From the NCBI GenBank assembly GCA_900110395.1, contig FODP01000001.1, positions 434,001-498,000 of the forward strand: a DNA stretch of 64,000 nt, read 5' to 3'. Shown here one piece after another: positions 53,008 to 56,434 of the stretch. The position numbers were made by a program, and so were the translations under genes. This DNA is from Rhodospirillales bacterium URHD0017 (GTDB lineage Bacteria > Pseudomonadota > Alphaproteobacteria > Reyranellales > Reyranellaceae). A model generated the notes under the pieces. That model saw nothing but the letters and a program-made list of their open reading frames with translations. It was not told where the DNA came from and made no database searches. Numbering within the stretch: position 1 is the first letter of the stretch; the number at the start of each line of letters is the position of its first letter.

Positions 53008-53979
53008 TCAGAGGGCGCGCGTCACCGTCTCCGAGCCGCCGCCCCAGATCGGCAGGTAGGTCATCTTGTAGCCGGCGCCGCCCGTGAGAATGGGGTGAAT
53101 GGCGTCGGCCGAGCGCGCGATGCCTTGTCCCTGGTCGAACATGTAGCGCTGCACGCGCGAAAGATTCCAGCCGTCGTGGCGTGCGATCTTTTCGGCCATT
53201 TCCAGCGGCAGCAGGAAGACCTGCTCGCCACGCTCGTTCTTGCGATGCACGCTCGACATGACGACGCCGGCGCGCATGCCTTCGACGATCGGCGAGAGGA
53301 TGGCTTCGGGCGTGGCGCCTTCGCCGTCGCCCGGCAGCACTTCAGCCGTGCCGGAGATGCCCATCACCGTGATGGCGCTGGCATCGGTGCCAAGACCGCG
53401 GCGCGCGGTGAGCGTGGGGAAGGGGCCGTCGTTGCGCTCGGCGAAGCAGAACGTGTACTTGCCGGGCTGGCCCATGGTCGCCATGTCGCCGGTCTCGGCG
53501 CGGGCGCCGCCAATGTTGCGGATGCAGAGTTGCAGCGCACGGCCGATGCTGGCGTTGGCGCGGTTGCCCGGGCCCAGGCAGTTGGTGCCGGCGTTGATGC
53601 CGAGCTTGCGCGCGATCGGGCCGTGCACGCAGAGCGCCACACAGGCCGTCCCAGTAGTGGTGGCGATGCCCAGAAGGTTGAAGTCGGGTTCGAGGATCGC
53701 CTTTGCCGCGGCGAGGACCACCGGCAGTTCGGGTGGCTGGCAGCCGGCAATGACGCACTGATAGGCAACGGCGTCGGGTGTGATGTCGCCGAACATGGGC
53801 GGCATCATGCCGTGTGACTTGGCGCGGCTGACGACGCCGGCCACCATCGCCTCGAGTCGCCGCCGCGTCGGGGGCACCAGCGGCAGGCCATCCGACAACT
53901 CGGCGTCGGTCAGGATCTGCTGCGCTTTCTCCCAGCTCGTCGCGTCATCGACGACAGGCCAGCCGCACCAGTCGGTCAT
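53008..53979 (-). CDS. Uncharacterised companion of the UGSC selenoprotein, paralogue 2
   Basis: 323 residues, no signal peptide. It is a clear relative of the gene upstream: SDGLPLVPPT, CVIAGCQPPELPVV, GTNCLGPGNRANASIGRALQ (about 131-150), MGQPGKYTFCFAERNDGPFP. Four cysteines are shared with the paralogue (about 80, 113, 134 and 178), which points to a metal site or thiol chemistry. It lacks the Cys at the INCGSNC position, having Ala. Starts within the stop of paralogue 1 (ATGA). Function unknown; the operon suggests work with the selenoprotein. Confidence 0.75.
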   Translation of the reverse strand: MTDWCGWPVVDDATSWEKAQQILTDAELSDGLPLVPPTRRRLEAMVAGVVSRAKSHGMMPPMFGDITPDAVAYQCVIAGCQPPELPVVLAAAKAILEPDFNLLGIATTTGTACVALCVHGPIARKLGINAGTNCLGPGNRANASIGRALQLCIRNIGGARAETGDMATMGQPGKYTFCFAERNDGPFPTLTARRGLGTDASAITVMGISGTAEVLPGDGEGATPEAILSPIVEGMRAGVVMSSVHRKNERGEQVFLLPLEMAEKIARHDGWNLSRVQRYMFDQGQGIARSADAIHPILTGGAGYKMTYLPIWGGGSETVTRAL

Positions 53980-55013
53980 CCGGCGATGCGGACGCAGGCG
54001 ACCGTCGTGCCGCCGAACGACGGGATGAAGGCCGAGTGCTTGCCCGGGCCGCCGGCCACGGTGATGTGGATGTCGGCGGCCGAGCGGCCGATGGTGAACC
54101 AGTCGCCATCCGGCTTGTGGCCGGTGCTGCTGTAGGTGTCCTGGTTTTCCTTGGAGATGCGCGAGACATGGATGCGCGAGCGCTTGAACAGCTCCTCGCG
54201 GATGCTCTCTATGGTGTAGCCGTCGCGCTTCAGGGTCTGGGCATGCTCAGGTCCGATGATCATCAGCATCGGACCCTTGCCGTAGACGGTGTTGGCGCCC
54301 GGCGTCGACATGGAGCCGGCGAAGGTGGTCAACAAGCCGTCACCGGTCGTGCTGCCGTGGTCGTTGAGATTGTGCGGACCTTCGCCCGACATCACCGTCA
54401 CCACGCTGTCGGTCGCAGCGAAACCGCGCTGCACGTGGTAGGGCGTCCAAGGGTTCTCTTCCTCGTTCTCGCCGAAGCAGAAGGTGAACTTGGCGGGATT
54501 GCCCTGGGTCGAGCGGTCCATCTCGCCGGGCTTGGCGCCGGCGATGTTGAGCAGCATCAGGCCGAGCGCGCGGCCGATGGTGGCGTTGGCCTGCCAGCCC
54601 TGGCCGAAGCAGTTCGAGCCGCAATTGATGTTGAGCTGCTTGCGGATCGGGCCGCTCACCATGACAACGGGTGCGCACGAGTGCGTCGTCGCCAGCGAGC
54701 CGTGCAGATTGTACTCGGGGTCGAGCACGCCGCGCAGCGCCGCGGTCACCACAGGGAAGTACTCCGGCTTGCAGCCTGCCATCACCGCGTTGGCCGCCAT
54801 GCTTTGCAAGGTCGGCACGACTTGGCGCGGCGGCACTGGCGGGATCGGCCGGTTGTCGCCGCGCACGGTCGCGACGAACCTCGCCACCTTCTCCTCGGTC
54901 GGGACGTAGAGCGGCATGCCGTCGCTCCAGCCCTGCTCGGTGGCAAAGTCGTTGAAGGCCTCGACATCCATGTCGCCGATGTCGATCACTTCCTGCTCGG
55001 CGATGTCCTTCAT
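53976..55013 (-). CDS. Uncharacterised companion of the UGSC selenoprotein, paralogue 1
   Basis: 345 residues, soluble. Seen: WSDGMPLYVPT (about 29-39), VMAGCKPEYFPVV (about 77-89), SCAPVVMVSGPIRKQLNI (about 112-129), NCGSNCFGQGWQANATIGRAL (cysteines 131 and 135) and NPAKFTFCFGENEE (about 172-185). Five cysteines stand at or near positions shared with paralogue 2. No known fold was recognised. The ATG overlaps the stop of the selenoprotein gene (AAATGAAGG), so ribosomes that pass the UGA can go straight on to it. Confidence 0.75.
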   Translation of the reverse strand: MKDIAEQEVIDIGDMDVEAFNDFATEQGWSDGMPLYVPTEEKVARFVATVRGDNRPIPPVPPRQVVPTLQSMAANAVMAGCKPEYFPVVTAALRGVLDPEYNLHGSLATTHSCAPVVMVSGPIRKQLNINCGSNCFGQGWQANATIGRALGLMLLNIAGAKPGEMDRSTQGNPAKFTFCFGENEEENPWTPYHVQRGFAATDSVVTVMSGEGPHNLNDHGSTTGDGLLTTFAGSMSTPGANTVYGKGPMLMIIGPEHAQTLKRDGYTIESIREELFKRSRIHVSRISKENQDTYSSTGHKPDGDWFTIGRSAADIHITVAGGPGKHSAFIPSFGGTTVACVRIAG

Positions 55014-55528
55014 TTGCCCGTTGCCTCGGTCAGTCCCTTGGTTGCCGCTTCGATGCGCTCGCGCAGTTCGTCGGCGTTCAGGCCGCCGATGGGATGCTTC
55101 ACGACGATCAGCCGGGGTTCGACCTTACGGGCCTTGGCTTGCGCCAGAACCAGCGGCTTGAACGTCTCAGTGGCGATCACGTAGGCCGTGATGCCGCGCT
55201 TCTCGAGTTCGATGCTGTCGTGGAAACTCCACGATGAACAGCTTCCTCAATCCGCTATGGCTAGCAGCGCCCCTCGGTAGTTGGCGGCGACCTTCTCGAG
55301 CACGTCGGCCGGCGCCGGCTGGCTGGCGCTGTTCTTCGACAGGAAATCGATATTGTCGATCTGGCGCGTGGCGCCGAGCTTCTCGCGGATGCCGGCCAGC
55401 AGCTCGCGGGCGTTGGGCTTGGAGTTCGACACGAGCGCGATGGCATCGGTCGCCCAGTTGACGGGCTTGAGGGTGACTTTCTCGGCCGAGGTAGCGGAAA
55501 TGCCGAAGCTCGGATTGACGATACGCAT
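55010..55528 (-). CDS. UGSC-containing selenoprotein, in-frame TGA read as selenocysteine
   Basis: 172 residues if the TGA at 55247-55249 is read as selenocysteine (residue 94). Ordinary gene calling stops there and reports 93 residues. The frame runs on for 78 more: GSCSSWSFHDSIELEKRGIT, then AYVIATETFKPLVLAQAKAR and so on to TGA at 55010. ADUGSC followed by a short helix and Glu-Lys-Arg-Gly-Ile is the hallmark of the UGSC family known from bacterial selenoproteome surveys. Sec94 and Cys97 form a UxxC redox pair. GAGGAG lies eight bases before the ATG. It follows the thioredoxin-reductase-like gene by 12 bases and overlaps the next gene. Confidence 0.9.
55214..55242 (-). promoter_or_regulatory. 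Bacterial SECIS-like hairpin after the UGA
   Basis: In the mRNA, four bases after UGA: GCUGU, bulge UCAU, CGUGG, loop AGUUU, CCACG, ACAGC. The apical loop begins 18 bases after the UGA, has G in its second place and a GU pair of bases, and the upper stem has five pairs: all as expected for a bacterial SECIS bound by SelB. The U in the bulge recalls the E. coli fdhF element. Confidence 0.8.
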
Positions 55529-55540
55529 AGCGGGTACTCC

Positions 55541-56434
55541 TCAGTTCGTCTTCAGGGCCGTCACGATGGCTTGGCCGGCGCGTCTGCCGTCGGCGATGGC
55601 GTCGGCGAGATAGTGCCGCGCGCCAGCCCGCACGTCACCCGCGGCGAACACCGTGGCTGCCGACGTGCGGCCCCCTTCGTCGACCACGATATTCCCGGTG
55701 GCGTCGCGTGCAAGCGTTTCCGGCAGAAATTCCGCTGCGGGAGACTGGCCGACATAGACGAACACCGCGCTGGCCGGAATGCTCTTCCGCGCGCAGCTGG
55801 TCTCGACGACGACGAACTGCAGGCCGTCGCTGCCTTCGAGCGCGACGATGCGACCGTCAAGGTGATGCACGCCGTCGGGCAGCGATGCCGCCGGCTTGCC
55901 GATCATGGTGACGTCGCCGGCCACGACCTGTAGTTCGGCGGCTTCGCGCGGCGCCCAGCCCTCGGTGCCGGCGACGACGACCGGCCGGCCGGCATAGAGC
56001 GGACCATCGCACGACGCGCAATGGGAGAGACCTCGGCCGTCATACTCGGCTTCCTCGGCCAGACCGAGCGTGCCCTTGCTGAGGCCGGTGGCGATCACCA
56101 CGGCGCGGCCGGTGTGTTGCTCGCCCTCGGCGGTCTCGACCGTCCACGGGCCCACGTCGGCGCCAGGGCCGGTGAGCTTCACGACTTCGCCGAAGCCCAG
56201 CTCGACGCCGGCCTCCGTCGCCTCGTCGGTCAGCTGCGAGGCGATCTGCGGACCGTCGGCGTGACCCCCATCGGCGCTGGCGACCTCATGCAACTCGGCG
56301 AGATTGATGAGGGCGCCACCTGGCGCGAGCTTGTCGAGGCAGAGTACCTTCAGCCCGGCCCGCGCGGCGCCGGTGGCTGCGGTGAGACCAGCCGGGCCCG
56401 CGCCAATCACGATGACATCGAAGGAAGTGCTCAT
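55541..56434 (-). CDS. Thioredoxin-reductase-like FAD flavoprotein
   Basis: 297 residues. FAD site VIGAGPAGLTAATGAARAG (about 9-27), redox-active CASC at 139-142 in GLSHCASCDGPLYAG, and the second FAD motif TVFAAGDVRAGARHYLADAI (about 258-277). The NADPH motif is degenerate (AGTEGWAPREAAEL in place of GGGxxAxEEA) and no HRR follows, so the electron donor may not be NADPH. First gene of the operon, it is the obvious reductant for the selenoprotein (inference). The 149-base gap to the divergent DUF2235 gene should hold the promoter. Confidence 0.85.
   Translation of the reverse strand: MSTSFDVIVIGAGPAGLTAATGAARAGLKVLCLDKLAPGGALINLAELHEVASADGGHADGPQIASQLTDEATEAGVELGFGEVVKLTGPGADVGPWTVETAEGEQHTGRAVVIATGLSKGTLGLAEEAEYDGRGLSHCASCDGPLYAGRPVVVAGTEGWAPREAAELQVVAGDVTMIGKPAASLPDGVHHLDGRIVALEGSDGLQFVVVETSCARKSIPASAVFVYVGQSPAAEFLPETLARDATGNIVVDEGGRTSAATVFAAGDVRAGARHYLADAIADGRRAGQAIVTALKTN

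What the first reader, a model, noticed from the sequence alone, without database searches (positions are those of the whole stretch)
55010..55528. Selenoprotein hidden by an in-frame TGA: a UGSC family member
The sequence shows an open frame of 93 codons, TGA, then 78 more codons in the same frame without a stop, encoding Gly-Ser-Cys and a family-like continuation. Established knowledge: UGSC-containing proteins are a bacterial selenoprotein family, with Sec at exactly this place. Inference: the TGA is decoded as selenocysteine. Automated annotation would cut the protein in half and lose the catalytic residue.
Basis: partly seen in the sequence, partly recalled or inferred. Interest (0 to 1): 0.95.

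Follow-up and report, generated by a model that had tools for sequence, protein, structure and literature searches.

The report
UGSC selenoprotein with obligate unnamed partner
The "stop" codon inside this small bacterial gene almost certainly encodes the rare amino acid selenocysteine, making the gene a member of a known selenoprotein family of unknown function, and its relatives are found only in genomes that also carry an unnamed partner protein, usually encoded next door, which points to a two-protein enzyme.

Summary
Confirmed, on the minus strand. Window 55528->55010 encodes 172 residues with in-frame UGA at codon 94 (55249-55247) in DUGSC. It matches Pfam UGSC (PF24696, E=4.5e-35). The genome has selA, selB, tRNA-Sec and selD. 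Evidence for Sec: UGSC occurs in 64/64 genomes of the order, every listed copy with exactly one TGA; across 387 alphaproteobacterial genomes, 38/38 with a TGA form have selA; Cys replaces Sec in relatives (haloarchaea, Streptomyces); the half after the UGA is under stronger purifying selection; SECIS loop G23-U24 is in 67/67 unfused Sec genes and 0/42 Cys genes. New here: UGSC sits beside a ~340-residue family with no Pfam or NCBIfam model. Both families occur in exactly the same 41 of 387 genomes and are sometimes fused. The window operon is TrxR-like > UGSC > partner A > partner B. The UGSC model is Rossmann-like; its Sec aligns with the UxxC Sec of PrdB/GrdB reductases (weak, P about 1e-4). 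Likely mechanism (inferred): the Sec/Cys pair does redox or nucleophilic catalysis on a substrate held with the partner, with TrxR-like re-reduction. The family is known; the obligate partnership is the added value.

The parts
55010..55528 (-). UGSC family selenoprotein gene, 172 codons with Sec at 94, stop TGA
   Evidence: translation; PF24696 E=4.5e-35; conserved TGA
55247..55249 (-). in-frame UGA decoded as selenocysteine (codon 94, motif D-U-G-S-C)
55218..55234 (-). bacterial SECIS hairpin: 7-bp stem (nt 16-22 with 26-32 counted from U of UGA), 3-nt loop GUU with G23-U24 at 55227-55226
   Evidence: fold; 85/86 Sec genes against 7/42 Cys genes; synonymous-recoding control; G23U24 in 67/67 unfused Sec against 0/42 Cys genes; bSECIS model in PMC13188914 and G23/U24 in PMC8659212
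55541..56434 (-). TrxR-like flavoprotein gene (CASC redox motif), first gene of the operon, 12 bp before UGSC
   Evidence: TIGR01292 E=1.1e-50 (172 bits, below its cut-off of 343); Pyr_redox_2; retained beside UGSC in 17 of 20 window-type orthologous loci
53976..55013 (-). partner A, 345 aa, no Pfam or NCBIfam model; ATG overlaps the UGSC stop (ATGA)
53008..53979 (-). partner B, 323 aa, paralogue of partner A (31% identity, E=9e-45); ATG overlaps the partner A stop
55537..55542 (-). Shine-Dalgarno-like GAGGAG, 8 nt before the UGSC ATG, overlapping the stop of the TrxR-like gene
   Evidence: sequence

Best explanation
The gene is a UGSC-family selenoprotein: UGA 94 is decoded as selenocysteine by the genome's own SelA/SelB/SelC/SelD through a SECIS hairpin whose loop begins 19 nt after the UGA (shown by comparative evidence; about 97% sure). 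It is one subunit of a conserved module: UGSC plus a ~340-aa partner of an unmodelled family, here in an operon with a TrxR-like flavoprotein and a second partner copy (co-occurrence and linkage shown; physical complex inferred, about 80%). Mechanism inferred, about 45%: the Sec sits at the end of a beta strand and the start of a helix of a Rossmann-like domain, next to the Cys of U-G-S-C. The selenolate attacks or reduces a small organic substrate held between UGSC and the partner, a Sec-Cys selenenylsulfide forms, and the TrxR-like protein (or general thioredoxin in modules that lack it) re-reduces it, in the manner of the PrdB/GrdB reductases. The substrate is unknown; neighbours point to catabolism of organic acids or CoA thioesters. 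The confidence given is for the Sec decoding and the UGSC/partner module, not for the chemistry.
For: Family match; Sec machinery selA/selB/selC/selD; conserved TGA in 64/64 genomes of the order; 38/38 TGA-form genomes have selA against 28 of the other 349; both UGSC genomes without selA have only non-TGA forms, with Cys at the Sec position; 46 further loci found with a Cys pattern in named genomes; purifying selection after the UGA; SECIS. Module: partner beside UGSC in all loci examined but L070 and in 46/46 named loci; identical set of 41/387 genomes; fusions. Mechanism: UGSC model pLDDT 86.6; UGSC aligned to PrdB/GRDB-type selenoproteins with Sec on Sec, P=1.2e-4 and 4.9e-5 with more sequences, controls P=0.23; TrxR-like gene in the operon; catabolic neighbours.
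Against: No direct evidence of Sec incorporation or of a physical complex. The link to PrdB/GrdB is weak (HHalign probability 55-68%) and PF07355 does not match UGSC itself. Many modules lack the TrxR-like gene. The window protein scores 111.9 bits against NCBIfam's equivalog cut-off of 125. The overall folding energy of the window's SECIS is not exceptional among synonymous recodings (35% fold at least as well); it is the hairpin position and the loop GU that stand out across the family.
Confidence: 0.9

Rival explanations
1. The TGA is a true stop: a 93-aa product or a decayed gene.
For: Automated ORF calling ends there.
Against: TGA at the same place in every listed copy in 64 genomes; the second half is better conserved than the first; Cys at the position in relatives; selA always present with the TGA form.
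Confidence: 0.01
2. UGA is read as another amino acid (suppression or code change).
For: UGA is in frame.
Against: TGA ends all four genes of the operon; SelB, tRNA-Sec and a SECIS loop are present; the replacement in relatives is Cys.
Confidence: 0.02
3. UGSC is a general thiol/selenol antioxidant with a thioredoxin fold, as PMC2398784 guessed, and the partner is only a neighbour.
For: UxxC motif; a TrxR-like gene in the operon.
Against: Alternating strand/helix order in the model, with no thioredoxin among the 50 best matches; identical phyletic set and fusions with the partner; catabolic neighbourhoods.
Confidence: 0.15
4. Same module, but Sec/Cys acts as a nucleophile or metal ligand in a non-redox reaction (lyase, hydrolase or transferase), not as a reductase.
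For: A nucleophile at a strand-to-helix turn is common in Rossmann-like enzymes (own knowledge); neighbours include CoA-transferase, lyase and amidohydrolase genes; G319 and G444 copies have lost the second Cys (CGSS).
Against: The second Cys is otherwise nearly invariant; a TrxR-like gene is retained in two module types.
Confidence: 0.3

Closest known systems
UGSC-containing selenoprotein family (Pfam PF24696; NCBIfam NF041046; PMC2398784, PMC13188914)
   Same: Sequence match over the whole protein, UGSC motif, UGA at the motif, Cys forms exist
   Different: Window type is a divergent Sec-only branch (DUGSCSSWSFHD) below the NCBIfam equivalog cut-off, in an operon with a TrxR-like gene and two partner genes
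PrdB / GrdB selenoproteins (PF07355, TIGR04483), D-proline and glycine reductase
   Same: UxxC Sec motif; profile alignment puts Sec on Sec
   Different: PF07355 does not match UGSC; the partner shows no relation to PrdB-like proteins; many hosts are aerobes, unlike clostridia (own knowledge)
UGSC/'Unknown_1' fusion of PMC2398784
   Same: UGSC fused to a second domain with conserved Cys; the fused partner seen here (L076, L081, L096, L101-L117) is probably that domain
   Different: Its supplementary alignment could not be read, so identity is inferred; here the partner is shown to be obligate and mostly a separate gene

Membership tests
UGSC family (PF24696) | score above the Pfam cut-off over the full domain | tested here: met
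   121.8 bits against 25, residues 3-167
UGSC family (PF24696) | U/C-G-S-C motif | tested here: met
   DUGSC at residues 93-97
UGSC equivalog NF041046 | score above the NCBIfam curated cut-off of 125 bits | tested here: not met
   111.9 bits; own-genome paralogues 128, 121, 107 and 45 bits. Filed under the wider Pfam family, not under this equivalog
bacterial selenoprotein gene | in-frame UGA with Sec machinery in the genome | tested here: met
bacterial selenoprotein gene | bSECIS: 3-9 nt loop, 4-16 bp stem, G in the first two loop positions, 16-37 nt from UGA, MFE <= -7.5 | tested here: met
   3-nt loop, 7-bp stem, G first, 19 nt, -16.6 kcal/mol; model from PMC13188914
bacterial selenoprotein gene | Sec shown in the protein (75Se or MS) | not testable with these tools
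   experiment needed
GrdB/PrdB (PF07355) | match to the family profile | tested here: not met
   no PF07355 match up to E=0.01; only a weak profile-profile similarity. Not filed as a member
thioredoxin fold | Trx fold | tested here: inconclusive
   model is alternating strand/helix, Rossmann-like; no Trx among the listed matches

The most novel reading that the evidence does not exclude
UGSC plus the unmodelled partner is an uncharacterised, widespread two-subunit enzyme of bacteria and haloarchaea, a distant mechanistic cousin of proline/glycine reductase that works in aerobes, with a dedicated TrxR-like electron donor in some lineages.
Probability: 0.35. Interest if true: 0.8.

Novelty: new member of a known kind. 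Interest (0 to 1): 0.5.

Why it matters
UGSC is one of the most abundant selenoproteins in ocean and freshwater samples (PMC2398784) and its function is uncharacterised (PMC13188914). The obligate partner family, unmodelled in Pfam and NCBIfam, turns 'a selenoprotein of unknown function' into a defined two-protein (here four-gene) system that can be expressed, purified and assayed. Standard gene calling cuts this gene at codon 93 and loses the Sec motif.

Tried and rejected
True stop/pseudogene and code change: rejected. Thioredoxin fold: not supported by the model, no Trx among the listed structure matches. Partner and UGSC against PDB sequences: nothing significant. Relation of the partner to PrdB-like proteins or to UGSC: none seen. 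The genome-contig scan used a Cys pattern, so it fetched Cys forms. Haft and Tolstoy 2025 (PMC12013261), which may discuss selenoprotein neighbourhoods, is not held, so priority for the partner linkage is not established. In the tree L142 was labelled Sec without a check of its motif; the tree needs about 5 Sec/Cys changes, 3 forced by supported branches.

Full report
Observation. The frame is real and lies on the minus strand: ATG 55528, TGA 55249-55247 as codon 94, stop 55012-55010, 172 residues. The joined protein matches Pfam UGSC, PF24696, E=4.5e-35, and NCBIfam NF041046 at 111.9 bits, below that model's equivalog cut-off of 125.

Sec machinery. The genome (8.18 Mb, 62 contigs, 99.6% complete) has tRNA-Sec (71.5 bits; ARAGORN tRNA-SeC, anticodon TCA), selA (565 bits), selB (449 bits against 242) and selD (377 bits). 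selA, selB and selC are adjacent on contig C21, beside formate dehydrogenase-like genes.

Conservation of the UGA. All 64 genomes searched in the order carry UGSC, and every listed copy has exactly one TGA inside. In 387 alphaproteobacterial genomes 41 have UGSC and 66 have selA. I compared the two lists by hand: all 38 genomes with a TGA form have selA, against 28 of the other 349. The two UGSC genomes without selA (G337, G366) have only non-TGA forms, with Cys at the Sec position (NCGSC, GCGLC). G269 has selA and only a Cys form; G319 and G444 have both forms. A scan of named genomes with a Cys pattern found 46 loci, including Streptomyces, Embleya, Nonomuraea, Natrinema, Natrialba, Halorubrum, Bradyrhizobium, Methylobacterium and Bacteroidota. 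Between the window gene and ten orthologues, dN is 0.16-0.42 before the UGA and 0.02-0.25 after it, with dS 0.43-2.32. A tree of 101 UGSC sequences needs about five Sec/Cys changes, three forced by supported branches.

SECIS. The 50 nt from the UGA fold into a hairpin with a 7-bp stem and loop GUU. This meets the bSECIS model of PMC13188914. The loop places G23-U24 where PMC8659212 names G23 and U24 in the apical loop of the E. coli element; the U17 of that element is C17 here. A hairpin of this kind is present in 85 of 86 Sec genes and 7 of 42 Cys genes, and in 25% of synonymous recodings of the Sec genes. G23-U24 is in 67 of 67 unfused Sec genes and 0 of 42 Cys genes. Caveats: Cys genes come partly from other lineages, sequences are related, and the window's folding energy alone is ordinary among its recodings (35% fold at least as well). 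Fused-type genes carry a similar hairpin with the loop bases shifted by about one. The genome's own formate dehydrogenase-like frame on C21 shows an in-frame TGA followed by a comparable hairpin.

The operon. The gene order on the minus strand is TrxR-like (55541-56434), UGSC, partner A (53976-55013), partner B (53008-53979), with a 12-bp gap and two ATGA overlaps. The TrxR-like protein has a CASC motif and matches TIGR01292 at 172 bits, below the cut-off of 343, so it is TrxR-like and not a proven thioredoxin reductase. Partners A and B are 31% identical and match no Pfam or NCBIfam family; a scan of 72 members of the family gives no shared Pfam match and no NCBIfam match at all.

Obligate partnership. 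A partner gene lies beside UGSC in every locus examined except L070 and in 46 of 46 named loci. A profile of the partner finds exactly the same 41 of 387 genomes as the UGSC profile (lists compared by hand). In 17 of 20 window-type orthologous loci the TrxR-like gene is present too. A second type is a UGSC-partner fusion of about 560 residues with a Sec, mostly in the motif UGSCTPA; 19 such loci (L081, L096, L101-L117), ten of them with a TrxR-like gene, and the own genome has one on contig C37. The window's genome thus has five UGSC genes, all with one TGA. PMC2398784 reported a UGSC/'Unknown_1' fusion; that this is the same partner is inference, as its supplement was not readable.

Structure and possible mechanism. 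The UGSC model (pLDDT 86.6, pTM 0.80) alternates strand and helix, with Sec94 directly after strand 86-92 and before helix 95-110. Matches are generic Rossmann-like or flavodoxin-like folds, not a thioredoxin fold as PMC2398784 guessed. A natural fusion (L076) is modelled with pLDDT 89.3 and pTM 0.91. Comparing UGSC with PrdB/GRDB-type selenoproteins of related genomes aligns Sec with Sec (hhalign P=1.2e-4, probability 55%; P=4.9e-5, probability 68% with more sequences, controls 0.23). This is a hint of distant kinship, not membership. Neighbours of UGSC modules include CoA-transferase III, 3-hydroxyacyl-CoA dehydrogenase, beta-keto acid cleavage enzyme, enoyl-CoA hydratase, amidohydrolases, and TctC and dicarboxylate transporters, which suggests a catabolic role. 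The redox or nucleophilic mechanism, the physical complex and the electron donor are inferred.

Known or new. The family, its Sec and its Cys forms are known (PMC2398784, PMC13188914). The obligate, unmodelled partner with identical phyletic range is not in the papers I could read; Haft and Tolstoy 2025 was not available. The organism is probably a Reyranella relative (own inference, not tested).

Noticed in passing
L193 (G000:C15:87449-87667): A PrdB/GRDB-like gene with an in-frame TGA in LLVPVUPAC, a further probable selenoprotein in this genome (TIGR04483 103 bits, below its cut-off of 300).
   Followed up: partly
G000:C21 (L018, L087): Formate dehydrogenase alpha-like frame with an in-frame TGA and a SECIS-like hairpin, next to selA-selB-selC.
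   Followed up: partly
G167:C19, G138:C73, G349:C14, G109:C1, G387:C446: In these genomes a UGSC gene lies within about 10 kb of selA.
   Followed up: no
L144, L145, L151: Cys-form UGSC plus partner in haloarchaea (Natrinema plasmid, Natrialba, Halorubrum), with CoA-transferase and lyase genes near the Natrinema copy.
   Followed up: partly
G296:C109:140079-141098: Partner frame with one in-frame TAG: decayed gene, sequencing error or recoding.
   Followed up: no
L082, L086: Cys-form copies with CGSS that lack the second Cys, in genomes that also keep Sec copies.
   Followed up: no
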